A stretch of 64,000 nucleotides of DNA from positions 1-64,000 of the IMG/VR virus record IMGVR_UViG_3300030004_000001. One strand, written 5' to 3'. A program made the translations under genes and the position numbers. The stretch is from a virus. The notes under the pieces were generated by a model that was given only the letters and a program-made list of their open reading frames with translations, did not search any database and had not been told where the DNA came from. This document shows positions 23,567-49,032 of this stretch, in pieces. Position 1 is the first letter of the stretch. The number at the start of each line of letters is the position of its first letter.

Positions 23567-23578
23567 TTAAGGGTCGTG

Positions 23579-26500
23579 ATGAATCATCAGATAACTAAAG
23601 AAAATACTCAACCAATTATTGATGTTATTCATAATAACATTAAAGAGATTTTTCCTTTAACTGTAGGTAATAAAACTATAGAAGTAAAGAATATAGAGAC
23701 AGTTGGTTGGGATAAGGCTGATCCAACCAACTATTATGATATTGCTAATGCAAAAGCACACGATAAGACTTACGGGGTAAATCTAGTCGCAGATGTAGAG
23801 TTATCCCAAGATGGTAAAGTAATAGATAAAAAGAAAATGAAATTAGCTACAGCACCGGTAATGGCTGGTGATGGAACTTTCATTGTTGGTGGATCACAGT
23901 ATCAAGTTGATCATCAGTTAAGATTGCGGCCCGGTATTTATTCTCGTATTAAACAGAATGGCGAAATTGAAGCACATGTAAATCCAAATGGTTTTAAAAA
24001 TTTACGTTTAGCCGTAGACCCCGCTACAAAGAAATTAACTGTAAATGTAAATCAGGCAAATATTAATGCTATTCCAGTATTAAGAATTCTTGGTATTTCT
24101 GATACTGAAATTAAAAAATCATTTGGTGATGATGTATATGATGCTAATATTAAAATTCTTGGCAAGAAGGGTGATGAAGAAATTAAACGTTTCTTTAAAT
24201 CCGTTCATCCTTATGATGAATTACCGGAGACTAATAAGTTAATAGCAGAACATTTATCTCTCTCACTAAGAGAAGCTAAACTAGATCCTAAAGTAACTAA
24301 AATTACATTAGGTCAAGAATATGATCACGTTAATGGAAATGCTTTATTAAGAGGATTTCAGAAAGTAATTAATGTTTCTCGTGGAACTGAACAACCTGAT
24401 GATCGTGATGCATTAGCATTTAAAACTATTCATTCAGTTGAAGATTTTGTTAATGAACGATTAAAGAAAAATAAGAAATCAATTCAATTTGCTATTCAGA
24501 ATAGAATGCGTAAAAATGATAAACTTGATCAGATTATGAATTCTGGTCATATTAATCAGCATGTATTCTCATTTTTTAATTCTGCTGCACTTTCAGAAAT
24601 TCCTTCACAGATTAATCCATTATCAGTAATTAATAGTTCATTTAAAACTACTATTACTGGTGAAGGTGGTATTGAAAATGCAGAATCAATTATGCCAGAA
24701 TCTCAAGCCTTACATCCTAGTCATTTAGGATATCTTGATCCAATCAATACTCCTGAGTCAAAAAAGATTGGTGTTACTTTAAATTTAGCTATTGGAACTA
24801 CTAAAAAAGGAAATGAACTTCTCAGTAAATTTAGAAACATAAAAACTGGTAAAGAAGAAGATATTTCAACTATCGATGCTTATCATAAAGTTATTGCTTT
24901 ACCCGGTCAAGAATTAAAAGGTCAAGTAACTGCTATTAAACATGGCAAACAAGTAGAAGTTGATGCTAGTGAAGTTACTCATGAGCTTCCTAATGCCTAT
25001 TCGGCCTTTACTATGGCTTCTCAGGCATTACCTGCAATGAATCATAATCAGGGTAATAGAGCTGGAATGGCCTCTAGACATATTAATCAGGCTATCTCAC
25101 TTAAACATCGTGAAGCACCTTTAGTTCAAGTTCAATCACCACTTTCCAAAGACATGAGTACTGAAGAATTTTTTGGTAAAAAATTCCAAATTGCGCTTCA
25201 TGCTAGAAATGAAGATGGAATTATTCAAGATATTACTAAATCACATATTATCTTTAAAGGTGATAGTGGTAAGGTATATGAATATCCTATTTTTAATAAT
25301 TTTGATCTACAAAATAAATCTTATTTACATCATGAAATTGAAAATCTTAAAATAGGCGATAGATTTAAAAAGGGTGATCTTATTGCCGATTCTAATTTTA
25401 GTAAAGGTGGCGTATTGTCACTCGGAACTAATCTTCGAACTGCTTATATGCCATGGAAAGGTTTAAATTTTGAAGATGGCATTGTAGTATCCGAATCAGC
25501 AGCTAAAAAATTAACTTCAAATCATTTATTTCAAGATAATATCGATAAAGATAATGATTCGGTATTAGTTAATAAAAGAAAATTTGTAACCTTATATCCA
25601 TCTAAATATACAAAAGCTCAATTAGATAAAATTAGTGATAATGGAATAGTAAAGGAAGAAGTTACTTTACAACCAGGGGATCCTTATGCTTTAGTATTAC
25701 ATAAGGCTCAGGGGACTCAAGAAGATCTTATGTTAAATAGATTACATAAATCTCTTGTACAACCTTATAAAGATATGTCTAAAACTTGGGAACAGTTAAC
25801 TCCCGGAAAAATTACTAGATCAGTAGAAAATACCAGAAATGTAAAGATTCATGCTAAATATGAAGCACCTGCAATTATAGGTGATAAACTTGCATTAAGA
25901 CATGGTAATAAGGGAGTCATTACCTCAATAGTTGCAGATAAAGAAATGCCTACTACTAAAGAGGGTAGATCTACCGAGGTATTAATTAGTCCCTTAAGTA
26001 TTGTTACTCGTATGAGTCTTGGTCAAATGTTGGAAAATTCTGCAAGTAAAATTGCAGAAAAAACTGGTAAACCTTATATTATTGAAAATTTTTCAAAAGA
26101 TAATCAATTAGAAAAAATTAAAAATGATTTAAAGAAACATAATATATCGGATACGGAAGAATTATTTGATGAACATGGAAATTCTTTTGGACAAGTGTTA
26201 GTAGGAAGTCCATTAATTGAAAAATTATTTAAGACTGCAAAAGCTAACGTTTCCGCTAGAGACAGTGGTGCCTATGATATAGATAATAAGCCAATTAAGG
26301 GTGGTGAGGATGGTTCGAAGGCTATCGACCAATTGACTCTTTATGGCTTATTATCGCACGGTGCGCGAGGCATTATTAATGAGGTTAGCACGGTCAAGGG
26401 TGATGGAAACGCCCAGTTTTGGCAGAATCTCCAAAATGGCTTACCCATACCTAAACCTCAAGTTCCATTTGTATATAAGAAATTTGAAGCAATGCTTCAT

Positions 26501-29500
26501 GCTGCTGGTATTAATGTTAGACATGATGGTTCTAGAAAAATATTATTACCTCTAATTGATTCTCAAATAGATGAATTAGCTGGAGATAACGAAATTGAAT
26601 CTTTTGGTATGTTAGATCATAATTTTGAACCAATCAAAGATGGGTTGTTTGATCGTCATACAACTGGTGGTTCAAATGGTGATAAATGGGCAAAAATTAC
26701 ATTAGCTCATCCATTAGTTAATCCAATGTATGAAAATGCTGTCAAAACCATCTTAGGTCTTAAGGACTCTGAATTTAAAACAATTATAAAATTGGAAGGT
26801 GGTCATGATAAAATTAAAGGAATGTTGGCTAATCTCAATGTTCATGAGCAGATTGATAATCTTACGGCAGGTATCAAGACTGCGCCGAAAACTAAAAAAG
26901 ATAAGCTGGTTAAACAACTTAAAATTTTCAAGTCACTTGATTCACTCAAGCTCTCTCCCGTTAACGCTTATATTACTTCCGTGGTTCCGGTTGTCCCTCC
27001 TACTTTCAGACCTATCTTTGAAATTCCCGGTGGGCATGTACAAACACATAGTTTAAATAATTTATATAGAGATTTGGGTTTAATTAATAATACTATCAAA
27101 GAGCTTGGACGTACTCCTGAATTGACAGATGCACTTTATAATTCTCTGGGTGCAATTCAGGGTGTAAATAATCCAATTACTAAACAAAATGAAATTAAAG
27201 GTGTTAAGGGTGCCATTCAAATTATCACAGGATCTGGTTCACCTAAATATGGGTTCTTTCAAAATAAAACATTACGTAAACAACAGGATTTATCAGGAAG
27301 AGCAACTGCTGTATTAAATAATAATCTTAATATGGATCAAATTGCTATTCCTGAAAAAATTGCTAAAGTAATTTACAAGCCATTTGCTATTAAAGAATTA
27401 ATTAAAAATGGTTATAGTTATCAAGAATCTGTAGATCATATAGATCATTTAGATAATATTGGAAAAAAGGCTGTTCAAGCTGCGATGTCAGATCGTCCAG
27501 TGTTAATGAATCGCGCTCCATCATTACATAAATTTTCAATTATGGCATTTCAGCCAACATTAACTAAAAATCTTTCTATTGAAGTTCCAGGGCTTATCGT
27601 TAAACCTTTTTCATTAGATTTTGATGGAGATACATTAGTTCTGCATGTGCCAGCTACCGAAAAAGCACGTAAAGAATCTTTTGGATTAATGCCAAGTAAG
27701 AATTTATATAATCCTAGAATGCGTACTTTAAATTATGCTCCAGATCAGGGAGCTATTCTAGGATTGCATTTACTTTCTCAAACTGAAGAAGGTTTAGTTA
27801 AGATAAATGATTTATTTCCAAAAGATATTTTGCCTATTGGTTCAAAAATTACTAAAAAGATGGTGGATAAAATACTTGCAAATTTAGCAGAAAAGTATCC
27901 AGAAAAATATAATGAAATTACTACCAAATTAAAACAAATGGGCGATACTTATGCTACTAAAGCAGGATTTTCTTTATCCTTAGCAGATCTTCCTAATAAT
28001 TCTAAAGAAGTTAATAAAGAATATAAATCTGCTGTAGGTTTATTAAAATCAAAATCATTAAGCGATGAAATTAAACTAAACGCTTTACTTAAAGCTGATA
28101 AATTTATTAAAGATAATGCATTAAATGACAAAACTAATAATTTTGTGACTATTGTAGCTTCTGGTTCTAGAGGATCGTCTGAACAGATAAAACAGATGTT
28201 ATTTGCCCCTGGAGTTATGAGTGATCATAATGGAGATCCATTACTTCATCCAGTTTTAACTAATTATTCACAAGGTATGCCCTTTAACGATTATTGGACT
28301 ACTTTATATTCTGCACGTAAAGCTGCTTTAGATAAACAGTTAATGACTGCTAAACCTGGCGCTTTAAATAAAGAGGTAGTAAATACTACAATGAGTATTG
28401 TAATATCGGAAAATGATTGTGGAACTAAATTAGGTATTCCTATGAATACCGATGATAATAATCTTGTAGGAAGATATTTAACGAATGGCACATTAGTGAA
28501 TAAAAGTAATATAGAATCTATACGTGATAAACATAAAGAAGTAATAGTTAGATCACCTACCACCTGTAGGGCATCACATGGGATTTGTCAGAAATGCTTT
28601 GGTATTGATGAATATGGTAAACTTCCAGATATTGGTCATAATGTTGGAATTAAATCAGCTCAAGCAGCAACAGAACCTTTAACTCAGGCAGCTATGAAAA
28701 CTTTCCATATGGGTGGAACGGTTTCTGGTGGTGGTGGTGTATTTGGTGGTTTTGAACATGTCAATAATTTTCTCGTTTCTCCAGAAACTTTTAAAGATCG
28801 AGCTACGTTATCAAAATTAGATGGAAAGATTACAAGTATAACTCCAGGGTCTGCCGGTGGTTTCCATGTTAATGTAAATGAACAAGATCATTTTATAACT
28901 CCTGGCTCTGGTAGTCTTAAAGTTAAAGAAGGTGATAAAGTAAAGAAAGGCGATTTATTAAATAATGGTATTCCTCATCCTAAAGAAGCTATACATCTTT
29001 TAGGTGAATTAGGTGGGCTTCATAAAATTACAGAGACTCTTCATAATATTTATAAAAATTCTGGCATTTCTATTGATAGAAGAAATTTAGAGACAATTGT
29101 TAGAGGTATGACAGGATTTGGAATAGTAGAAGATGAAGGAACTCATAAACATTTCGTAAAGGGAGATGTAGTACCTTTAAGTCAAATTTATGAATTTAAT
29201 ACAACAACTAATAAATCCTATAAATTACCTTTAAATGATGCTTTTGGAAAAAGTTTAGATGAAAATATCGGATCTTTTAAAATTGGAAATATAGTTAATT
29301 CTAATATGATTAAATCTTTACAAAAAACACATAAAGAAATTACTGTAAAGGAAAATCCTGTAACTTATGAACGTACCTTACTGGGAGTACAGCAAGCACC
29401 ACTTAAGTCTCACGACTGGGCTAATCAGCTTGCTTTCCGATATCTCAAACGTGGTTTGCAGGAAGGATCAACTTATGGTTATTCTTCAGATGTTCATGGA

Positions 29501-29563
29501 TATTCTCCTATAGCTCCATTTGTTACTGGTCAAATGGAAGATGGACCAGAAGGAAGATATTAA
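23579..29563 (+). CDS. Single-chain fused RNA polymerase beta-beta' (1994 aa)
   Basis: One uninterrupted frame holds both large subunits of cellular-type RNAP. Beta part: GTFIVGGSQY (~98), GYLDPINTPESKKIG (~384-398), MPWKGLNFEDGIV (~624-636), GDKLALRHGNKG (~768-779), TRMSLGQMLE (~811) and a C-terminal anchor YGLLSHGARGIINEV (~922). Beta' part: KDGLFD (~1020), ITLAHPLVNPM (~1040), VPPTFRPI (~1139), LSGRAT (~1238), LNRAPSLHKF (~1308), catalytic DFDGD (1347-1351), zinc site ENDCGT + TTC-GIC-KC (~1611-1673), EPLTQAAMKTFHMGG (~1700, trigger-helix region). The N-terminal beta' zinc finger is missing. ATG 23579 chosen over GTG 23576 by SD AAGGG. Transcribes phage genes, perhaps from within the virion. 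Confidence 0.93.
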   Translation: MNHQITKENTQPIIDVIHNNIKEIFPLTVGNKTIEVKNIETVGWDKADPTNYYDIANAKAHDKTYGVNLVADVELSQDGKVIDKKKMKLATAPVMAGDGTFIVGGSQYQVDHQLRLRPGIYSRIKQNGEIEAHVNPNGFKNLRLAVDPATKKLTVNVNQANINAIPVLRILGISDTEIKKSFGDDVYDANIKILGKKGDEEIKRFFKSVHPYDELPETNKLIAEHLSLSLREAKLDPKVTKITLGQEYDHVNGNALLRGFQKVINVSRGTEQPDDRDALAFKTIHSVEDFVNERLKKNKKSIQFAIQNRMRKNDKLDQIMNSGHINQHVFSFFNSAALSEIPSQINPLSVINSSFKTTITGEGGIENAESIMPESQALHPSHLGYLDPINTPESKKIGVTLNLAIGTTKKGNELLSKFRNIKTGKEEDISTIDAYHKVIALPGQELKGQVTAIKHGKQVEVDASEVTHELPNAYSAFTMASQALPAMNHNQGNRAGMASRHINQAISLKHREAPLVQVQSPLSKDMSTEEFFGKKFQIALHARNEDGIIQDITKSHIIFKGDSGKVYEYPIFNNFDLQNKSYLHHEIENLKIGDRFKKGDLIADSNFSKGGVLSLGTNLRTAYMPWKGLNFEDGIVVSESAAKKLTSNHLFQDNIDKDNDSVLVNKRKFVTLYPSKYTKAQLDKISDNGIVKEEVTLQPGDPYALVLHKAQGTQEDLMLNRLHKSLVQPYKDMSKTWEQLTPGKITRSVENTRNVKIHAKYEAPAIIGDKLALRHGNKGVITSIVADKEMPTTKEGRSTEVLISPLSIVTRMSLGQMLENSASKIAEKTGKPYIIENFSKDNQLEKIKNDLKKHNISDTEELFDEHGNSFGQVLVGSPLIEKLFKTAKANVSARDSGAYDIDNKPIKGGEDGSKAIDQLTLYGLLSHGARGIINEVSTVKGDGNAQFWQNLQNGLPIPKPQVPFVYKKFEAMLHAAGINVRHDGSRKILLPLIDSQIDELAGDNEIESFGMLDHNFEPIKDGLFDRHTTGGSNGDKWAKITLAHPLVNPMYENAVKTILGLKDSEFKTIIKLEGGHDKIKGMLANLNVHEQIDNLTAGIKTAPKTKKDKLVKQLKIFKSLDSLKLSPVNAYITSVVPVVPPTFRPIFEIPGGHVQTHSLNNLYRDLGLINNTIKELGRTPELTDALYNSLGAIQGVNNPITKQNEIKGVKGAIQIITGSGSPKYGFFQNKTLRKQQDLSGRATAVLNNNLNMDQIAIPEKIAKVIYKPFAIKELIKNGYSYQESVDHIDHLDNIGKKAVQAAMSDRPVLMNRAPSLHKFSIMAFQPTLTKNLSIEVPGLIVKPFSLDFDGDTLVLHVPATEKARKESFGLMPSKNLYNPRMRTLNYAPDQGAILGLHLLSQTEEGLVKINDLFPKDILPIGSKITKKMVDKILANLAEKYPEKYNEITTKLKQMGDTYATKAGFSLSLADLPNNSKEVNKEYKSAVGLLKSKSLSDEIKLNALLKADKFIKDNALNDKTNNFVTIVASGSRGSSEQIKQMLFAPGVMSDHNGDPLLHPVLTNYSQGMPFNDYWTTLYSARKAALDKQLMTAKPGALNKEVVNTTMSIVISENDCGTKLGIPMNTDDNNLVGRYLTNGTLVNKSNIESIRDKHKEVIVRSPTTCRASHGICQKCFGIDEYGKLPDIGHNVGIKSAQAATEPLTQAAMKTFHMGGTVSGGGGVFGGFEHVNNFLVSPETFKDRATLSKLDGKITSITPGSAGGFHVNVNEQDHFITPGSGSLKVKEGDKVKKGDLLNNGIPHPKEAIHLLGELGGLHKITETLHNIYKNSGISIDRRNLETIVRGMTGFGIVEDEGTHKHFVKGDVVPLSQIYEFNTTTNKSYKLPLNDAFGKSLDENIGSFKIGNIVNSNMIKSLQKTHKEITVKENPVTYERTLLGVQQAPLKSHDWANQLAFRYLKRGLQEGSTYGYSSDVHGYSPIAPFVTGQMEDGPEGRY

Positions 29564-40987: not shown

Positions 40988-42271
40988 TTAGTTTCCTCGA
41001 ATTTTAATTGCGCCAGCATGACGCGGGATCCCATACTTACTTAATATCTGATAAGTAAATTCTAGACTTAATCCAATATAATCTTGCTTATTATTCCAAA
41101 TTTCTTGACGCTTTTCATGAGAAAGTTTTCCGGGTGCAATTTCAAAAGTTTTATCAAGCCATTTAACCATGAACTTTCCAACCATACCTTGATGACTAGC
41201 TTCCCCCTCTAAAATATCTACAATCTTACCTTCTGTTGATTCTTGAGGTTTAATCTTAATCCAATCATCACTTCTCTTAGTCCCAACAGAAGGACTATAG
41301 ATATGATCAATTGTTTTCAATACCGCACCCTCATACTTTTGTTCTAGAAATTGTTGATAATAACCATCAATTAAAGTATAGAATTGATCTTCGTTAGAAG
41401 GAGTAATTTTAAAAGATGGAATAACTCTAAAATTAATTAATGAAGGTGTATTATTAATTAACATACAAGTTCTTTCATAAACACTTTCGTACGTTTCGGT
41501 ATGATTTTTACTTAACCATTGAGTTAATTTATAACTTCCAAAGAGAGTTAAGATAGAATCTTCAACTTGTTCAGTTTTACGTCGAATAGCTCCAACCTCT
41601 TCTAAACAAGCTCCAGATTCTACTTCACCATCCATAACAAAACAACTATCCCAAAATGCATCATTAACTTGTTTTTCAAGAATTTGCAAGGATGTAATAT
41701 CTTTTCCAGTACGTGTATAAAATTTAATTCCTTGATTTGGATATTTAATTCCAATACATCTCATACCATCAATTTTTGGCTGAATAACATATGAGTTATT
41801 AAATTTAATATTCTTTACTTTATCTAATCTTTTAGCAAACATTACTTCAAATTGTTTAATATTTAACTTCTTACAATACTTATTCACATCTGTAGCATTA
41901 ATACCAAGACGTAACTTATTGTCGAGAATATTAAGAAACATCTCAACTTCATCAGAACCATTTAATTGATTAGCAAAATCAATACATTTCTGATTAGCTG
42001 CATTACCTCTAAGCTCTTCTGAAGATAGGATATTTAATAGGCTAAAAAGTTCTTCGTCTAACTCTTGGTTAGATTTAAATGACAATAGACCAATATCAGA
42101 AAGTCCAGAATTAATTTTATCTACAACAGCAAAAAACCTCACATCTTTATCAAAAATAATATTAAGTAATTTTGGATAAAAATCTCCTTGATTGGCAATT
42201 TCATCTAATAAATAAGCTTTATCAATCTTCTTCCCAACTTGACCGATCTGTACTAATTGTTTCAAGATCAT
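40988..42271 (-). CDS. ATP-dependent DNA ligase (427 aa)
   Basis: Seals nicks during replication and repair. Ligase motifs in order: I QPKIDGMR (~164-171, nucleotidyl Lys), III-like FYTRTGKDI (~183) and MDGEVE (~213-218), IV YEGAVLKT (~307-314), V WIKIKPQ (~331-337). The N-terminal ~140 residues are helical, like a T4-type ligase DNA-binding part. Start ATG 42271 with SD GGAG inside the end of the upstream gene (50-nt overlap). Confidence 0.9.
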   Translation of the reverse strand: MILKQLVQIGQVGKKIDKAYLLDEIANQGDFYPKLLNIIFDKDVRFFAVVDKINSGLSDIGLLSFKSNQELDEELFSLLNILSSEELRGNAANQKCIDFANQLNGSDEVEMFLNILDNKLRLGINATDVNKYCKKLNIKQFEVMFAKRLDKVKNIKFNNSYVIQPKIDGMRCIGIKYPNQGIKFYTRTGKDITSLQILEKQVNDAFWDSCFVMDGEVESGACLEEVGAIRRKTEQVEDSILTLFGSYKLTQWLSKNHTETYESVYERTCMLINNTPSLINFRVIPSFKITPSNEDQFYTLIDGYYQQFLEQKYEGAVLKTIDHIYSPSVGTKRSDDWIKIKPQESTEGKIVDILEGEASHQGMVGKFMVKWLDKTFEIAPGKLSHEKRQEIWNNKQDYIGLSLEFTYQILSKYGIPRHAGAIKIRGN

Positions 42272-42428
42272 CTATGTAAACTCCACAGATAGAACATCTC
42301 TCATTGAGGAAGTTCTTATCATTATTCATTATAGGAAGGTGATTACTACGCGCATGTTTAGCGCAATAGCAGTCACCGTATTCAGGATCGTAATATCCAA
42401 TTACTTTAAGTGCAATGTTTTGAGGCAT
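42222..42428 (-). CDS. Small zinc-finger-like protein (68 aa)
   Basis: Has DCYCAKHA at ~19-26 and ERCSICGVYIDD at ~43-54: CxC plus CxxC, probably one zinc site. Overlaps both neighbours (28 nt and 50 nt). The pattern with a terminal CSICG resembles small phage proteins of unknown function. Confidence 0.6.
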   Translation of the reverse strand: MPQNIALKVIGYYDPEYGDCYCAKHARSNHLPIMNNDKNFLNERCSICGVYIDDLETISTDRSSWEED

Positions 42429-43027
42429 TTCTCAAACTCGTTATACGATTCAAACTTGAGGATTTCTGGACGATCAGGGCATTCAAAGAAAGTCTTCACG
42501 ACTGTCCACTGTCCATCCGTTTCTTTGGAGATAGTAACTTTATTACTAAGATATCGTTTATTCTTTCCAATAATAATATTTTTACCCTTAACGTTTGCGA
42601 TCTTAATCTCTACATCGATAATTCCAGTATTAATATGATCATAAAGATCCTTTTTGTATAACTGATTTTCTACTTTCTGCCTATATTCAAAAGTATGAAC
42701 TTCCTTAAGTTTATGCTCCGAAGATAGAATCCTCTCAATTTTTTCTTTAGTAGTACATCCACTAATATCAATAACACCTTCAAGTAGATTTTCTTCGGAT
42801 AACTTTTTAACCCCAGTAGGATGATTTGGAATTTCAATATTAATCAAATAATATTTAACCCCACGACCCTTACCACCCTTCTTAACTTCCTGAAGATCTA
42901 ATGCTGCATTAACTAACCTCTTAATATCATTAAGATTATCATCTCCAAATTCATTTCTCAGATCATCTACACTGGCTCCAGATGTTCCATGTTTACCAAG
43001 ACTTTTCAAAAGATCAGCTAACCGCAT
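42401..43027 (-). CDS. Winged-helix protein, array member 3 (208 aa)
   Basis: N-terminal ~60 residues form a winged helix: helix, GASVDDLRNEFG, helix, then wing GKGRGVKYYLI. The same layout occurs in the two genes upstream. The C-terminal ~110 residues are beta-rich and resemble the C-terminus of the next paralogue (IGKNKRYLSNKVTI against IGQKISRTVYNKMGI). Likely DNA-binding; role unknown. TAATG overlap with the gene upstream. Confidence 0.65.
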   Translation of the reverse strand: MRLADLLKSLGKHGTSGASVDDLRNEFGDDNLNDIKRLVNAALDLQEVKKGGKGRGVKYYLINIEIPNHPTGVKKLSEENLLEGVIDISGCTTKEKIERILSSEHKLKEVHTFEYRQKVENQLYKKDLYDHINTGIIDVEIKIANVKGKNIIIGKNKRYLSNKVTISKETDGQWTVVKTFFECPDRPEILKFESYNEFEKCLKTLHLK

Positions 43028-43632
43028 TAAATTTCTCCAGAAAAAAGAATTCTTAGATATTCCCTCATATCTTCATAATCATTAAAAGTCTCTACTTCAA
43101 ATGATTCAGTATGAGTATTATATTTATTAATAATAAACTTTCTTCCAATTTGTTTAATTCCCATCTTATTATAAACTGTGCGAGAGATCTTTTGACCAAT
43201 TACATTCTTCTTTTTTACCTTATCATATCTTACAAAATTCTGTTCTATAACAGATCCAGATTTGAAGAATGAAACTAAATCTTTATCATCTTTTCCAAAC
43301 TTCATAATATTACAAAATACACCTTCTCCAGAAACTGGTTTATCTGATTTCAAAATAGATTCCAATTCTGAATGATCTAATGAATCTGCAAATTCTTCAA
43401 CTTCCGATTCTTTCTTTGGTTCTGGTTTTACGGGCTCTATACCTTTAGCATAATATCTAGTTCCGCGCTTTTTACCTTCTGTAAAAATTTCATCATTATT
43501 AAGTCCAGATTTAATATATTGTTTCAATAAAGATTCATCTTCGAATAATTCTTTTAACTCTCCCATTGAAGCGCCAGTTGGTTGAGTTTTCAAATATGTT
43601 ACTAACTCTCTAAGACTATCCATTTTTGACAT
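43027..43632 (-). CDS. Winged-helix protein, array member 2 (201 aa)
   Basis: Begins with a winged helix (TGASMGELKELFEDESLL, wing EGKKRGTRYYAKG), a charged linker (~65-95), then a C-terminal beta domain similar to the downstream gene. The pair looks like a tandem duplication that has diverged. Overlaps its neighbour upstream by 17 nt. Confidence 0.65.
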   Translation of the reverse strand: MSKMDSLRELVTYLKTQPTGASMGELKELFEDESLLKQYIKSGLNNDEIFTEGKKRGTRYYAKGIEPVKPEPKKESEVEEFADSLDHSELESILKSDKPVSGEGVFCNIMKFGKDDKDLVSFFKSGSVIEQNFVRYDKVKKKNVIGQKISRTVYNKMGIKQIGRKFIINKYNTHTESFEVETFNDYEDMREYLRILFSGEI

Positions 43633-44545
43633 TTGTTAGCCCATATATGAAACTAATACCATCTTTTATATTTTCAAATTTCTTAAGTTGATTTATAGTT
43701 CCATTTTTCATAAATTTAATTTGAAAAATATCATTTCTATCTAAACCAACACTAATTGCAGTTGCTTCATCGGAAATAAGAAAATTACTTAATTCATCGA
43801 TACGTTCTTCTACTCTTCGTTCTTTACTTAACTCTTCCATAATACTTTCAACTTCACTACAAGATACTGTTTTATAAATATATTTAGAAGACTTTCTAAC
43901 GCCTTCGTGATAAATCTCTTCTTCATTACAAAGTTTATTTAATACATCAATAATATCACTTCTACTTAATTCTAATTCTTCAATTATCATTGGAATTGTT
44001 ACTACTTTACGCTTTTTAATAAAATCTAAAATATCACTATAATTATTACTTGGTGTATCATTCTTATTTTCTTTAACTTCTTCAGATTCAGAATCACCTT
44101 TACCAACTAATCTATATTTGGTCCAACGTAAAGATCCTTGTGATTCCACTTTCTTTTCTTCAATCAATTCCTTAACTGATGACAAGATGTTAGGAACTGA
44201 AACATCATCAATTCCCAACTCAGTTCTAGCCCACCACCCTGGAAACTTTTCTGACAGGTCTAGGATGCGTTGCTTTAAATCAGAATTAGAGGTATTGAAA
44301 GTTTCAGATACTTCTACTTCTTCTTTTAAATTCATATTAGATGTATAATAGGCTCCTTTTTTATTACCGATCATTTGAATTCTATTTTCGATACGCAAAT
44401 TATTTAAGGCATAGCGCAAAACAAATTCAGGGTTATTTGGATACTTCTCAAACAAATCTTTTGTTGTAAAAGTTTCTTTTGTAGAAGCAAATTTTAATAT
44501 CTTTTCTTCTAACTCAATTGGAATGTCTTTCTTTTCGATTCCCAA
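43616..44545 (-). CDS. Triple winged-helix protein, array member 1 (309 aa)
   Basis: TTG start at 44545 supported by SD AGGAA. Three winged-helix units can be seen, each ending in a basic wing: NKKGAYYTS (~62-70), SLRWTKYRL (~142-150) and VRKSSKYIYK (~215-224). A short C-terminal domain (FQIKFMKNGTINQLKKF) echoes those of the two genes downstream. DNA binding is very likely; whether as regulator or in replication is open. Confidence 0.65.
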   Translation of the reverse strand: MGIEKKDIPIELEEKILKFASTKETFTTKDLFEKYPNNPEFVLRYALNNLRIENRIQMIGNKKGAYYTSNMNLKEEVEVSETFNTSNSDLKQRILDLSEKFPGWWARTELGIDDVSVPNILSSVKELIEEKKVESQGSLRWTKYRLVGKGDSESEEVKENKNDTPSNNYSDILDFIKKRKVVTIPMIIEELELSRSDIIDVLNKLCNEEEIYHEGVRKSSKYIYKTVSCSEVESIMEELSKERRVEERIDELSNFLISDEATAISVGLDRNDIFQIKFMKNGTINQLKKFENIKDGISFIYGLTNVKNG

Positions 44546-44547
44546 CT

Positions 44548-44775
44548 TTACAATTCCTCAGGAATTAATTCCTCTTCAGTATAATATTTACCATCAACTT
44601 CATAATTAATGCTTAATACTTCGCCACAGACTTCTTCTGTTTTAGCATCTTGTTTACTAATTAAATTCCATAATTTTTCATTATCTTCATTTAATTCTTT
44701 CAAATGATCTAAATTTTCTATTTCAAATTCAATATTTTCCGTAACATTATGCTCAAGAATCATTGTTACTTTCAT
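44548..44775 (-). CDS. Small acidic protein (75 aa)
   Basis: Starts MKVTMILEHNVTENIEF; Glu/Asn-rich, one C, ends EEELIPEEL. Overlaps the ThyX-like stop by 1 nt. It carries the SD of the next gene. Unknown. Confidence 0.55.
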   Translation of the reverse strand: MKVTMILEHNVTENIEFEIENLDHLKELNEDNEKLWNLISKQDAKTEEVCGEVLSINYEVDGKYYTEEELIPEEL

Positions 44776-45407
44776 TATACTTCTCCAAGAATTAATTCCT
44801 TAAAATAAGGAAGTTGTTCGATTGCAGGGCAGATAACTTCACGCCATTCTGGCATTCTGTGATTAAGTCTGTCTCTATGTATGGACGCAAGACATTCATA
44901 ACTAAATGATCTATTACGAGCCTGTAACCAACCTTCCGGTAAACATGACTTCAGAATTTCAATTGGAATTTCTTGTCGAGAACCATATTGAAGAACTAAT
45001 GAATCAATATTCCATTTAAATTGATTAATTACATATTCGGGAGTATAATCTACAAACATATCTTTAGTAATTTCTTTAACTTCTTTTAAAAGTGTATACA
45101 TGGTACTTTCAGAAGAGATATTACCCACACCAACACTATAAGTATCCAGTTCAGCCCATATAGAACGTGGCATATTAATGTGGAACCAAGCCGTAATACC
45201 TCTACGAAATTTACTATGCACAGGACCTTGTTTAATTAATTTAGATGCAAGAGCGGCATCTTTAGGACCAAGAATTAAGTTAGTGTCATAAGGAAATTTT
45301 GCTTTTAATTCAATTCGAGAATCACCTTTTGATTTAGTTGGAAATCTCATTCCAGCGGTAGATGCTATAAAACCAGCAACTTCAATTAATTTAAATTCTA
45401 CATTCAT
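44775..45407 (-). CDS. ThyX-like protein, divergent (210 aa)
   Basis: Resembles the flavin-dependent thymidylate synthase fold: HSKFRRGITAWFHINMPRS followed by WAELDTYSVG, ISSESTMYTL (place of the S-x-E-x-S-x-R-Y motif) and NRSFSYECLASIHRDRLNHRMPEW (C-terminal helix). The classical RHR motif is not clear, so it may be inactive or use another substrate. It would make dTMP, next to RNR-supplied precursors. Alternative: an unrelated phage protein. Confidence 0.45.
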   Translation of the reverse strand: MNVEFKLIEVAGFIASTAGMRFPTKSKGDSRIELKAKFPYDTNLILGPKDAALASKLIKQGPVHSKFRRGITAWFHINMPRSIWAELDTYSVGVGNISSESTMYTLLKEVKEITKDMFVDYTPEYVINQFKWNIDSLVLQYGSRQEIPIEILKSCLPEGWLQARNRSFSYECLASIHRDRLNHRMPEWREVICPAIEQLPYFKELILGEV

Positions 45408-45416
45408 ATCATATCC

Positions 45417-45611
45417 TTATGACAGACCAATTAAGTTATCAACTAAAATTTCTTCAAGTTCAATATTATATAAATAATGTTCAATACAATTAATATTTTC
45501 TGTTAATAAAATTTCAGTAGGAATATTAAAATGTAATTGTAGATTACACTTAATAGATCTATTAATATTTATAGTTTCAAGTTTATCAATTTCATATTTG
45601 ATAGAATGCAT
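45417..45611 (-). CDS. Hypothetical protein (64 aa)
   Basis: Ile/Asn/Leu-rich (MHSIKYEIDKLETININ), one base from the gene upstream; no motif. Probably real by packing, otherwise unsupported. Confidence 0.45.
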   Translation of the reverse strand: MHSIKYEIDKLETININRSIKCNLQLHFNIPTEILLTENINCIEHYLYNIELEEILVDNLIGLS

Positions 45612-45612
45612 A

Positions 45613-46020
45613 TTAAAGATTTGGATTAAGTGAAATCTTATAATTCATAGCTTTATCAAATGCTGTGAAGATAGGTTCCATACAAGCACTCCAGTCAAAT
45701 TCTTCAGATTGGTCTGTGTATGTATTCCCACTATCTTCATCCATATATTCATAATTAGAACATTCAATTTGCTCCGCGACAACCCCATCTAACAAAATTA
45801 ATTTTTCCAAATCATTATTACCTAAAGATCCAACCACGGGAAATCGAAAACTACAATATCGATTCTTGCCATATTCATCAGGATTATTGAATCTGATATA
45901 GCAAAAATCATGATCAATTCTACTAGTCCATTTCCAGGTGTGGCCGTAGAGATTGGCACACAATACCTGAAGTGAACCTAATGAAATAATTCTAACTTTA
46001 TTTACTAACCAAGTGATCAT
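45613..46020 (-). CDS. Hypothetical protein (135 aa)
   Basis: ATGA overlap with the upstream gene. Aromatic- and Cys-containing N-terminal half (GHTWKWTSRIDHDFCYIRF) and an acidic middle (YEYMDEDSGNTYTDQSEEFDW). No motif recognised. Confidence 0.55.
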   Translation of the reverse strand: MITWLVNKVRIISLGSLQVLCANLYGHTWKWTSRIDHDFCYIRFNNPDEYGKNRYCSFRFPVVGSLGNNDLEKLILLDGVVAEQIECSNYEYMDEDSGNTYTDQSEEFDWSACMEPIFTAFDKAMNYKISLNPNL

Positions 46021-46208
46021 TCTACTTTCCTTCCATCAATTTCAATCACTTTACTTATACCAGTTTTTTCATCTAATTCAAGTGTTAATTCGAATTCATC
46101 ACAAGTATGACTAAACATTTTAGTAGCTTCATAAGATAAACCTATTTCAACTCCTTTATCCCATAAAGAATCATCATTACCATGAACGTAAACCTTAACT
46201 ATCTTCAT
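46017..46208 (-). CDS. Small protein (63 aa)
   Basis: ATG 46208 (MKIVKVYVHGND) is preceded by SD GGAGAGG; the longer frame starts inside the upstream gene. Beta-rich, acidic. The first residues MKIVKV loosely recall the VKLA motif but lack LA, so I do not include it in that set. Confidence 0.55.
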   Translation of the reverse strand: MKIVKVYVHGNDDSLWDKGVEIGLSYEATKMFSHTCDEFELTLELDEKTGISKVIEIDGRKVE

Positions 46209-46509
46209 TATCCTCTCCATAAGTTTCATCTAAATATTCTTTAGTTTCTTCTTCAGTTTTAAATGGACCTGACCAATCTGTACTATCAAGATAACCGGGC
46301 ATTGTCAAACGACCAAACCATCCCTGTTTTGATTGATAAAGACCTAATTCTTTTGCATATTCTATAGTAAATGGATGATAAGGATCATTATCTTCTGGAC
46401 AAATCTCTTCTACAATATCCTCAAAAGACAATATACCTTGAGGTACACAAGTAATACCATTTTTACTTTCAATAATATCAAACCAATCAAATACAATTTC
46501 TGGTATCAT
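46195..46509 (-). CDS. Acidic protein (104 aa)
   Basis: Very acidic (EDIVEEICPEDNDPYHP, ending YGEDNEDS) with a central GWFGRLTMPGYLDSTDWSGPF. Segments like the last are seen in small conserved phage proteins around RNase H or ligase genes. ATGA overlap with RNase H. Confidence 0.55.
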   Translation of the reverse strand: MIPEIVFDWFDIIESKNGITCVPQGILSFEDIVEEICPEDNDPYHPFTIEYAKELGLYQSKQGWFGRLTMPGYLDSTDWSGPFKTEEETKEYLDETYGEDNEDS

Positions 46510-46964
46510 TTACCTCTCCATGTCCCCGCAGCCTTCTGAGCCAATTCGTCAACAATTTCATTTAGAGTATTTCCATTATGTCCACGAACCCAAGTAGCTT
46601 TAACACTTTTATGTCGCTTAATTGCAGCATGTAACAATACCATTAAATCATGATTTAAACGCTTAGGATCTTTAATAAAAGAATTAATCCAGATATTAAC
46701 CGAGTTGACGAGATAGGTAGCATCGGAAATAATCTCCACATGACATGGATGTTTTAGATAATTCAAACCATCGATAGCACCTTGTAGCTCCATTCGATTA
46801 TTAGTTGTATTAATTATCTGTTTTGAAAAACTACTTTCTTTTTTTAATTCATAAAGTTCATATTCTGTATTATAAACTAAGTATTGAACTAAAAATGCAT
46901 ATCCACCTACATTACGTTTTCTAGAATATGCTCCATCTGTTATTAGTAATACTTTACTATTCAT
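46506..46964 (-). CDS. Ribonuclease HI (152 aa)
   Basis: Cuts RNA in RNA-DNA hybrids, e.g. removes Okazaki primers. The four catalytic acids are in place: TDGAY (D~9), NNRMELQGA (E~58), SDATY (D~81) and EIVDELA (D~139), with TWVRGHNGN carrying the conserved His. Normal length for a bare RNase HI domain. The SD is weak (GGAAT). Confidence 0.9.
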   Translation of the reverse strand: MNSKVLLITDGAYSRKRNVGGYAFLVQYLVYNTEYELYELKKESSFSKQIINTTNNRMELQGAIDGLNYLKHPCHVEIISDATYLVNSVNIWINSFIKDPKRLNHDLMVLLHAAIKRHKSVKATWVRGHNGNTLNEIVDELAQKAAGTWRGK

Positions 46965-46978
46965 ATTATTCCTAAATA

Positions 46979-47005
46979 GGTGTGTGACTTTTTAGATCAC
47001 ACACC
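46979..47005 (-). terminator. Intrinsic terminator-like hairpin
   Basis: GGTGTGTGA/TCACACACC, 9-bp stem, just after the stop of the gene at 47015; short U-run only. Confidence 0.65.
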
Positions 47006-47014
47006 TTTAGTTAT

Positions 47015-47527
47015 TTATACTTCCTTCAGACAATTATCGTAGCGTTCGAGAATTTCCTTAAGAAGTCCTTCAGTATCTTCTAAAGCAACATTCTCATAAT
47101 GCCAATCGAGAATATCCTTCTGCTTAGCAATAAGATAAAACAGGATATTTTCATGATCACATTCATAATTATGAAGAACATTAATAAATGCTTCAAGTCC
47201 AACGCGAATGCGATAATTATCTAATTCGAAATCTGCAATTACACTATTCTCACGAATATTTACTTTATAATTTTCAGTTACAAAAATATACTTATAAAGA
47301 AAACTATTACCAAAACTCTTATTAATAGCAAGAATTCGAGTAGCTTCAGGAATTTTCTTAAGACGATCTAACTGTTCAATGCAAGTGAGAATTTCATCAG
47401 TAGAACCAATATGTTTACCTTTAAGTTCAAGAGCAAGAAAAATATTATCTTCATTAATAAAACCAGTAGTAGCAAAACTTTCATTCTTCTTAATGCGCTG
47501 TTCTAACTTGCGGTAATCGAAAGACAT
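47015..47527 (-). CDS. Hypothetical protein (170 aa)
   Basis: ATG 47527 (MSFDYRKLEQRIKKNES) preferred: its SD GAGG is in the stop region of the broken DUF2829 gene. Codon use is richer in C than average. Alpha/beta with many charged residues; a LFYLIAKQKDILDWHYENV helix near the end. No family recognised. Ends at a terminator hairpin. Confidence 0.6.
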   Translation of the reverse strand: MSFDYRKLEQRIKKNESFATTGFINEDNIFLALELKGKHIGSTDEILTCIEQLDRLKKIPEATRILAINKSFGNSFLYKYIFVTENYKVNIRENSVIADFELDNYRIRVGLEAFINVLHNYECDHENILFYLIAKQKDILDWHYENVALEDTEGLLKEILERYDNCLKEV

Positions 47528-47529
47528 TA

Positions 47530-47611
47530 TTATACCTCGAACCAATCATCAGCAAGGATATCAGAAATAGAAGGAACCCAAGGAACACAAGATTCATCAA
47601 CGGACTTAAGC
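47530..47611 (-). pseudogene. C-terminal fragment of DUF2829 (Tad2-like) gene
   Basis: Reading LKSVDESCVPWVPS then ISDILADDWFEV-stop, which matches the usual end of DUF2829 proteins (VPW...DxLAxDW). It has lost its start because of the inserted element; the N-terminal part is at 48836-49032. Confidence 0.8.
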
Positions 47612-48835
47612 TTGACATCCTCCCCACGGCTAAAGCCGGGGGATTCCCTTAATTAGAGTCTTATGTCCAAGACCGACATTGAGAATATTAATAGCTGCAT
47701 TCACGTCACGATCATGAAGTGTATGACAACTTTCACATTCCCATTGCCTTACGGATAAGCCGCTTAGACCTTGATGTTCGCCGATTTCTCCACAAACATT
47801 ACAAGTGCGACTTGTCCAACTCTCGTTAACCTCTTTAAACTCAATACCAAGCTTAATAGCTTTATATGCAAGCATTGAGCGTAGCTGGGACCATCCAGCA
47901 TCGAGGACAGATTTAGCCATTTTAGTTTTCGTTAACTTAGATGAAGATACATCTCCAACTATTACCAATTTAGAATCTTTTAATATATTGTTGGCAGTTT
48001 TATGATTCCAATCTTTTCTAATATTTTTGATTTTAGCATATATTTTAGTTACTTGATGCTTCTTGTTAGCTCGTTGAGCCATTGCTAATTGTTTTTCATA
48101 ATATTTAGTAATATTTTCTCTATTATATTTACGACCATCTGAAAGAGTGGCATTTGTAGATAATCCTAAATCTATACCAATTTCAGAATTACCAGTTTGT
48201 TTTTTAAAATCTACTTCAACCGCAAAGTTAATATACCAATGTCCACGAGAATCTTCATTTAAGGATATTGTGCGAATATCTTTAGGAATCTCTCTTGTTT
48301 TCCAAAATTTAAATGTCTTACCACTAAATGTAAAAAATGCATCTTTATTAAGTTTAATGTTTTGATTTGTACATGGAATCCATCCAAGAGATCTCCTTGA
48401 TCCTTTTGAAGTTCTCCAATTAAGTTTTTGTTTTTTAAATTGATAACGTTTTGTGGTATATTCTTTACAAATCTGTTGTATAGTGGCTGAGTTTAGATTT
48501 AATTCTTTACTAGATCCTTTAGTTAAATTATTTAAATCATAATAATTTAACCATTTAGAATATTTCTTTAATTGATTGTACGAGGCTTCATTACAGTAAT
48601 TCCAAACTGTATTTACTGTATTAGCCCATCTTTTTAGATGGTGACTCTTAGAGCCACCATCTTTAATTCTGAACTTATAAGTGAGTAACAATATATCCTC
48701 TCTTGGCACCGTCCAAATAGGACATTAATGGTAGTGCCTTACCATGATTTATTTTAACACCCTTATGAGAGAAAATGATAGTGGGCAATTTATGCCTTGT
48801 ATCCCCATAGCTAAAGCTAGGGGTTTTACGGCACT
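47612..48835 (-). mobile_element. IS200/IS605-type element with tnpB only
   Basis: Right end: hairpin CCCCGGCTTTAGCCGTGGGG followed by AGGATGTCAA, the classic IS605-family right-end form. Left end: hairpin CCCCTAGCTTTAGCTATGGGG-like at 48801-48823. No TnpA transposase, so it would need one in trans. Inserted in a DUF2829 gene; joining CAAAT (48836 side) to GCTTAAG (47611 side) restores the frame with no target duplication, as expected for this family. Confidence 0.85.
47630..48691 (-). CDS. tnpB: TnpB RNA-guided nuclease (353 aa)
   Basis: TnpB uses an omega-RNA from the element's right end to cut DNA and favour retention of the element. RuvC-I IGIDLGLSTNATLSDG (~170-185); the RuvC-II block reads LVIVGDVSSSKL, without the usual Glu (VxxED); zinc ribbon CNVC and CESC (~301-330); RuvC-III HDRDVNAAINI (~333-343). 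This GDVSS variant is a known TnpB subgroup. TTG 48691 has SD AGAGAGG; GTG 48709 is an alternative. Stop lies in the right-end hairpin. Confidence 0.88.
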   Translation of the reverse strand: MLLTYKFRIKDGGSKSHHLKRWANTVNTVWNYCNEASYNQLKKYSKWLNYYDLNNLTKGSSKELNLNSATIQQICKEYTTKRYQFKKQKLNWRTSKGSRRSLGWIPCTNQNIKLNKDAFFTFSGKTFKFWKTREIPKDIRTISLNEDSRGHWYINFAVEVDFKKQTGNSEIGIDLGLSTNATLSDGRKYNRENITKYYEKQLAMAQRANKKHQVTKIYAKIKNIRKDWNHKTANNILKDSKLVIVGDVSSSKLTKTKMAKSVLDAGWSQLRSMLAYKAIKLGIEFKEVNESWTSRTCNVCGEIGEHQGLSGLSVRQWECESCHTLHDRDVNAAINILNVGLGHKTLIKGIPRL

Positions 48836-49032
48836 ATTTGATAAGGACGGAATTTTACAATAGTTCCAGCAGGCATATTTAATGCCTTCTGAGTATTTTC
48901 ATTAATAGAAATACCATCTGGATATCCTAGTTGATAAAAAGCAAATTGACCAGAACCATTCCAACCAGAACGAGACATTCGTTTACCTTCTTTTAATAAA
49001 CAAAGAGCCGTACTAAACGTCAAACAATCCAT
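48836..49032 (-). pseudogene. N-terminal fragment of DUF2829 (Tad2-like anti-Thoeris) gene
   Basis: MDCLTFSTALCLLKEGKRMS then RSGWNGSGQFAFYQLGYPDG is the DUF2829 signature (LKEGKxxxRxGWNGxGxF). Tad2 proteins of this family sequester the cyclic signalling molecule of Thoeris defence. The frame continues 10 nt into the inserted element to a stop at 48826; the rest of the gene is at 47530-47611. The truncated product lacks the last third and is probably inactive. Confidence 0.8.

What the first reader, a model, noticed from the sequence alone, without database searches (positions are those of the whole stretch)
47530..49032. TnpB element interrupts a Tad2-like anti-Thoeris gene and the empty site can be rebuilt
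Joining 48836 to 47611 gives a continuous DUF2829 protein (…RFPYQ-M-L-KSVDESC-like junction; …VPW…LADDW end). The element is an IS605-type with both hairpin ends but no TnpA. It shows a defence-counter gene lost, or switched if the element can excise.
Basis: seen in the sequence. Interest (0 to 1): 0.75.

Follow-up and report, generated by a model that had tools for sequence, protein, structure and literature searches.

The report
TnpB insertion inactivates phage anti-defence gene
A small selfish DNA element carrying an RNA-guided nuclease has landed inside a phage gene of a family that soaks up bacterial alarm signals; the gene is almost certainly dead, and precise removal of the element would not restore it, so this is an ordinary insertion in an interesting gene, not a demonstrated switch.

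Summary
A Tad2-like gene (PF11195) is split: 64 codons at 49032-48841 and 26 codons at 47610-47530 (both minus strand), separated by a 1,229-base IS200/IS605-type element (47612-48840) carrying one gene, tnpB. No TnpA is found in the 157-kb virus. Ends were placed by IS608 chemistry, multi-copy bacterial relatives and one natural empty site: cleavage sites TTAT and TCAA, guides AAAA and GAAT. At those boundaries the two flanks do NOT make an open reading frame: the joint reads ...RPYA-stop. Fourteen of fifteen homologues need two residues where the exact joint is five bases short, so a small deletion beside the element is likely. Precise excision would therefore not revive the gene; the 'switch' idea is not supported. 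TnpB is intact, with the relocated RuvC-II glutamate known from other TnpBs; its predicted guide is the interrupted gene itself. The nearest relative virus lacks the tad2 block. Best reading: a trans-mobilised tnpB-only IS that inactivated an accessory counter-defence gene. New member of a known kind.

The parts
48841..49032 (-). 5' part of the tad2-like gene (64 codons, MDCLTF...KFRPY); the present ORF runs 4 codons into the element and stops there (48826-49032, 68 aa)
   Evidence: PF11195 E 3.4e-10 in place, 9.2e-10 as protein; sequence
47530..47610 (-). 3' part of the tad2-like gene (LKSVDESCVPWVPSISDILADDWFEV + stop), no start codon of its own
   Evidence: PF11195 E 4.4e-7
47612..48840 (-). 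tnpB-only IS200/IS605 element, 1,229 bases
   Evidence: boundaries from IS608 rules, multi-copy relatives, one natural empty site
48841..48844 (-). left cleavage/target site TTAT (predicted TAM)
   Evidence: paired with guide AAAA; TTAT-AAAA and TTAC-AAAG covary among relatives
48803..48827 (-). left end: guide AAAA (48824-48827) and hairpin CCCCTAGCTTTAGCTATGGGG (48803-48823)
   Evidence: 39-base left end 95-97% identical in Helicobacter and Alicyclobacillus phage elements
47612..47646 (-). right end: guide GAAT (47643-47646), hairpin CCCCCGGCTTTAGCCGTGGGG (47622-47642), cleavage site TCAA (47612-47615)
   Evidence: IS608 values in PMC5934647
47630..48709 (-). tnpB, 359 aa with the listed GTG start (true start probably a TTG a few codons later); D180, E296 (alternative position), D335, four zinc-binding Cys intact
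47592..47611 (-). predicted guide segment of the TnpB RNA (first ~16-20 bases of the right flank, i.e. the interrupted tad2 gene)
   Evidence: by analogy with ISDra2 TnpB (PMC8612924); not shown here
47015..47527 (-). 170-aa neighbour of unknown family, absent with tad2 from the nearest relative virus
   Evidence: no Pfam match

Best explanation
A tnpB-only (IS1341-like) member of the IS200/IS605 family, moved in trans by a TnpA encoded elsewhere (host or co-infecting element), inserted 3' of a TTAT site in an accessory tad2-like gene of a large phage. The gene was cut into an N-terminal fragment, ended by a stop inside the element, and a C-terminal fragment without a start, so the signal-sponge protein is lost (inferred). 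A small deletion (five bases relative to homologues) arose beside the left end, probably by slippage between short repeats of the target site, so even exact excision leaves a frameshift and stop. TnpB, which looks catalytically intact, would use the flanking tad2 sequence as its guide and cut any TTAT-flanked uninterrupted copy of that site, which helps keep or spread the element. Shown here: the split, the ends, the boundaries, the out-of-frame joint, the intact TnpB triad, and absence of TnpA in the record. Inferred: trans mobilisation, loss of function, guide use, and the order of events.
For: Both halves match PF11195. Left and right ends fit IS608 rules: CR TCAA and GR GAAT identical, CL TTAT with GL AAAA in place of TTAC/AAAG. 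The last base of CL and GL covary: 14 TTAT-AAAA, 4 TTAC-AAAG, 1 TTGC-AAAG, no crossed case; Fisher p about 9e-5, or 0.006 after collapsing related copies. In 11 Sphaerotilus loci the right end stops at ...GATGTCAA and the next base is free. Six Acinetobacter elements share TTATCAAATGG at unrelated sites, so CAAAT is element sequence. An Acinetobacter empty site aligns across TTAT|right flank with no gap at the joint. The window joint gives RPYA-stop. Tad2 homologues, including PDB 8v3e, have two residues between PY and [LMI][KR]. D180/E296/D335 conserved in 61/61, 59/61, 61/61 aligned proteins. At least 23 relatives carry a tnpA divergent from tnpB; the window record has none.
Against: No empty or intact allele of this very gene was found, so the five-base deficit is inferred from distant homologues (under 50% identity). 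The window's TnpB is only about 43-50% identical to those of the multi-copy families used to set the ends. If the right end were TCAAG, the joint would be in frame (90 aa) but two residues short. Some truncated proteins keep activity; not tested.
Confidence: 0.85

Rival explanations
1. Reversible switch: the element excises cleanly during infection and restores a full Tad2.
For: Hairpin ends and guide/cleavage pairs are intact, so a TnpA in trans could excise the element. A join at 48836/47611 gives a 92-aa open frame.
Against: The in-frame join keeps five bases that belong to the element. The exact joint is frameshifted and stops. No TnpA in the record. The only second copy has the element.
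Confidence: 0.05
2. RNA-guided homing: TnpB with its tad2-derived guide cuts uninterrupted tad2 alleles of co-infecting phages, and repair copies the element across, a phage counterpart of the plasmid gene drive. This is an added role, compatible with the best explanation.
For: TnpB triad intact; guide would be the flank, TAM the TTAT site; plasmid gene drive by TnpB is reported in PMC11870625.
Against: No relative with an uninterrupted allele was found, so no target is known; activity untested.
Confidence: 0.2
3. The tad2 gene was already broken (five-base deletion) before the element landed.
For: The exact joint is already a non-functional frame.
Against: Slippage between TTAT repeats at the left junction explains the loss simply after insertion; selection on the gene would have opposed it before.
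Confidence: 0.12
4. IStron-like: the insert is spliced from the mRNA, so a full protein is still made.
For: TnpB-carrying self-splicing introns are known (general knowledge, not looked up here).
Against: No intron family match in the window at Rfam gathering scores or in the region at E<=1; flanks at the element's ends are out of frame.
Confidence: 0.02

Closest known systems
IS608 (Helicobacter pylori, IS200/IS605 family)
   Same: Hairpin ends, CR TCAA, GR GAAT, insertion 3' of a tetranucleotide read by a left guide (PMC5934647)
   Different: TTAT/AAAA instead of TTAC/AAAG; no tnpA here
tnpB-only IS605 elements of Acinetobacter, Azomonas, Sphaerotilus
   Same: TnpB about 43-50% identical, same right end GGGGAGGATGTCAA, no tnpA match beside tnpB in many copies, relocated RuvC-II Glu
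   Different: Multi-copy in bacterial genomes; here single copy in a phage
ISDra2 TnpB
   Same: Predicted RNA-guided nuclease fold (Foldseek E 1.7e-17 for 8h1j)
   Different: ISDra2 uses TTGAT and the canonical RuvC-II Glu (general knowledge); about 20% identity in the fold alignment
Tad2 / ModTad2 (PDB 8v3e, 9eib)
   Same: Best solved relative, E 1.1e-21 (read-through protein)
   Different: Here the gene is split and probably dead

Membership tests
IS200/IS605 (IS608-like, tnpB-only) | Subterminal hairpins with guide tetranucleotides 5' of each | tested here: met
IS200/IS605 (IS608-like, tnpB-only) | Insertion 3' of target tetranucleotide, no duplication or loss | tested here: inconclusive
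   Met for a relative with a natural empty site; for the window no empty site exists in the data and the joint is five bases short of homologues
IS200/IS605 (IS608-like, tnpB-only) | TnpA (Y1 transposase) present, as in autonomous members | tested here: not met
   so only non-autonomous (tnpB-only) membership is claimed
TnpB RNA-guided nuclease | RuvC D-E-D and zinc finger | tested here: met
   D180, E296 at the alternative position, D335, C303/C306/C325/C328; motif as in PMC10711439
TnpB RNA-guided nuclease | RNA-guided, TAM-dependent cleavage | not testable with these tools
   needs biochemistry
Tad2 (anti-Thoeris) | PF11195 domain over its full length | tested here: met
   only when both parts are read together (71 bits); each part alone is partial
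Tad2 (anti-Thoeris) | Continuous open reading frame | tested here: not met
Tad2 (anti-Thoeris) | Sequesters gcADPR / relieves Thoeris | not testable with these tools
   sequence relatives also include AcrIIA7

The most novel reading that the evidence does not exclude
The phage-borne TnpB acts as an RNA-guided homing nuclease: its guide is a counter-defence gene, so in mixed infections it destroys or converts tad2 alleles of competing phages, trading immune evasion for the element's spread.
Probability: 0.15. Interest if true: 0.6.

Novelty: new member of a known kind. Interest (0 to 1): 0.33.

Why it matters
It is a clear natural case of an IS inactivating a phage gene of a counter-defence family, with every boundary placed. 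It shows that an open frame after joining flanks is not proof of the empty site: the family's own end rules gave a different joint and reversed the conclusion about reversibility. If the TnpB is active, it would make RNA-guided homing between phages testable at a defined site.

Tried and rejected
Looked for an intact or empty allele by DNA, by exact 20-mers from each flank, by protein and by family in 21 virus records: none, except the identical contig (L004/L190) and distant homologues. Considered the TTATC|TCAAG, TTATCA|G and TTAT|C joints: open frames, but each contradicts the ends seen in multi-copy relatives. Looked for known RNA families at the site: only sub-threshold chance hits. PADLOC labels TnpB as Cas12f-like: set aside, because the NCBIfam TnpB model fits better; CRISPR arrays were not searched for. 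A missing canonical RuvC-II glutamate first suggested a dead nuclease (TldR-like); rejected because the alternative Glu is present and conserved in 59 of 61 aligned proteins. One alignment call failed on a frame with a stop and was repeated with clean frames.

Full report
Setting. The window is the first 64 kb of a 157,395-base IMG/VR virus record. It has 13 tRNA genes, a ribonucleotide reductase match, tail genes and a 1,995-aa protein with RNA polymerase beta matches: a large phage; the stretch around the finding has no DNA match in named phages beyond the element's left end.

The observation. On the minus strand a PF11195 (Tad2-like, DUF2829) gene starts at 49032 and is interrupted after RPY. 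A second PF11195 piece ends at 47530. Each piece passes the family cut-off alone, and read together they match the whole profile (71 bits). Between them is a TnpB gene flanked by two hairpins that occur nowhere else in the record. No Y1 transposase is found in the whole record. This is far beyond chance.

Where the element ends. For IS608, PMC5934647 gives CL TTAC, CR TCAA, GL AAAG, GR GAAT, with insertion exactly 3' of the tetranucleotide. The window has GAAT before the right hairpin and TCAA after it, and AAAA before the left hairpin. In phage and bacterial relatives the left guide and target change together: AAAG with TTAC (four cases; one TTGC), AAAA with TTAT (fourteen cases), no crossed case; some of these are related copies, so the collapsed test is weaker (p about 0.006). 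In Sphaerotilus, 11 copies end at GATGTCAA with a free next base, and their left guide CAAG goes with TGAC. Six Acinetobacter elements share TTATCAAATGG at unrelated sites, so CAAAT is element sequence. A natural empty site in another Acinetobacter genome aligns through TTAT|right flank with no gap at the joint. The element is therefore 47612-48840, 1,229 bases.

What the joint says. Joining 48841 to 47611 gives CGT CCT TAT GCT TAA: RPYA-stop, 65 aa. In 14 of 15 homologues, including the solved ModTad2 (8v3e), two residues separate the PY-like position from a hydrophobic-basic pair (read by eye from the alignment). The window joint is five bases short of that. Slippage between short repeats of the target site after insertion would be a simple cause; this step is inference. 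Consequence: exact excision would not restore the gene. The N-terminal fragment ends in the element and lacks the C-terminal third; in Tad2 the ligand pocket includes strand beta4 and helix alpha3 (PMC12043709), which I place in the missing part from general knowledge of the fold, so the product is probably inactive.

TnpB. The canonical RuvC-II glutamate position is Gly here and in 60 of 61 aligned proteins, but a glutamate with six residues between it and the zinc finger (E296) is kept in 59 of 61, D180 and D335 in all. This is the alternative glutamate described in PMC10711439. The AlphaFold model (mean pLDDT 80) matches ISDra2 and ISFba1 TnpB complexes. The right flank, that is tad2 itself, would be the guide, by analogy with ISDra2 (PMC8612924). 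At least 23 relatives carry a tnpA divergent from and beside tnpB, so a trans source of TnpA is plausible; none is known for this host.

Context. The one other copy found, a 6,736-base contig, is 100% identical to 41238-47973 and carries the insertion; it starts inside tnpB, so it says nothing on excision. In the nearest relative virus found, the exonuclease homologue (57% identical) is followed directly by the RNase H homologue (72%) and then a homologue of the 45613-46020 gene (59%). The tad2 gene, the element and the 170-aa neighbour are all absent there. So tad2 sits in an accessory slot. TTAT occurs about every 87 bases per strand; nothing suggests that tad2 was singled out.

Conclusion. 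Ordinary mechanism, well-placed boundaries, interesting target gene.

Noticed in passing
same virus record, about 119280-120383 minus strand (locus L002:1486-2589): A second, different TnpB (38% identity in the matched part, canonical RuvC-II Glu) with its own IS605-like ends, at the very start of a MazG-like gene beside a dCMP-deaminase-like gene (both names by eye, not searched). The flanks can be read in frame if the right end is at TATTC, which was not verified.
   Followed up: partly
47015-47527: 170-aa protein without Pfam match; absent together with tad2 in the nearest relative virus, so possibly a second accessory or counter-defence gene.
   Followed up: partly
41238-47973: 100% identical over 6,736 bases to contig IMGVR_UViG_3300029911_000856 (L190).
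   Followed up: yes
L084, L085, L087 (Helicobacter prophages) and L086 (Alicyclobacillus phage KKP_3916): Elements with nearly the same 39-base left end lie in phage genomes of very different hosts; L085 appears internally deleted.
   Followed up: partly
23576-29563: 1,995-aa protein with matches to phage RNA polymerase beta subunit families.
   Followed up: no
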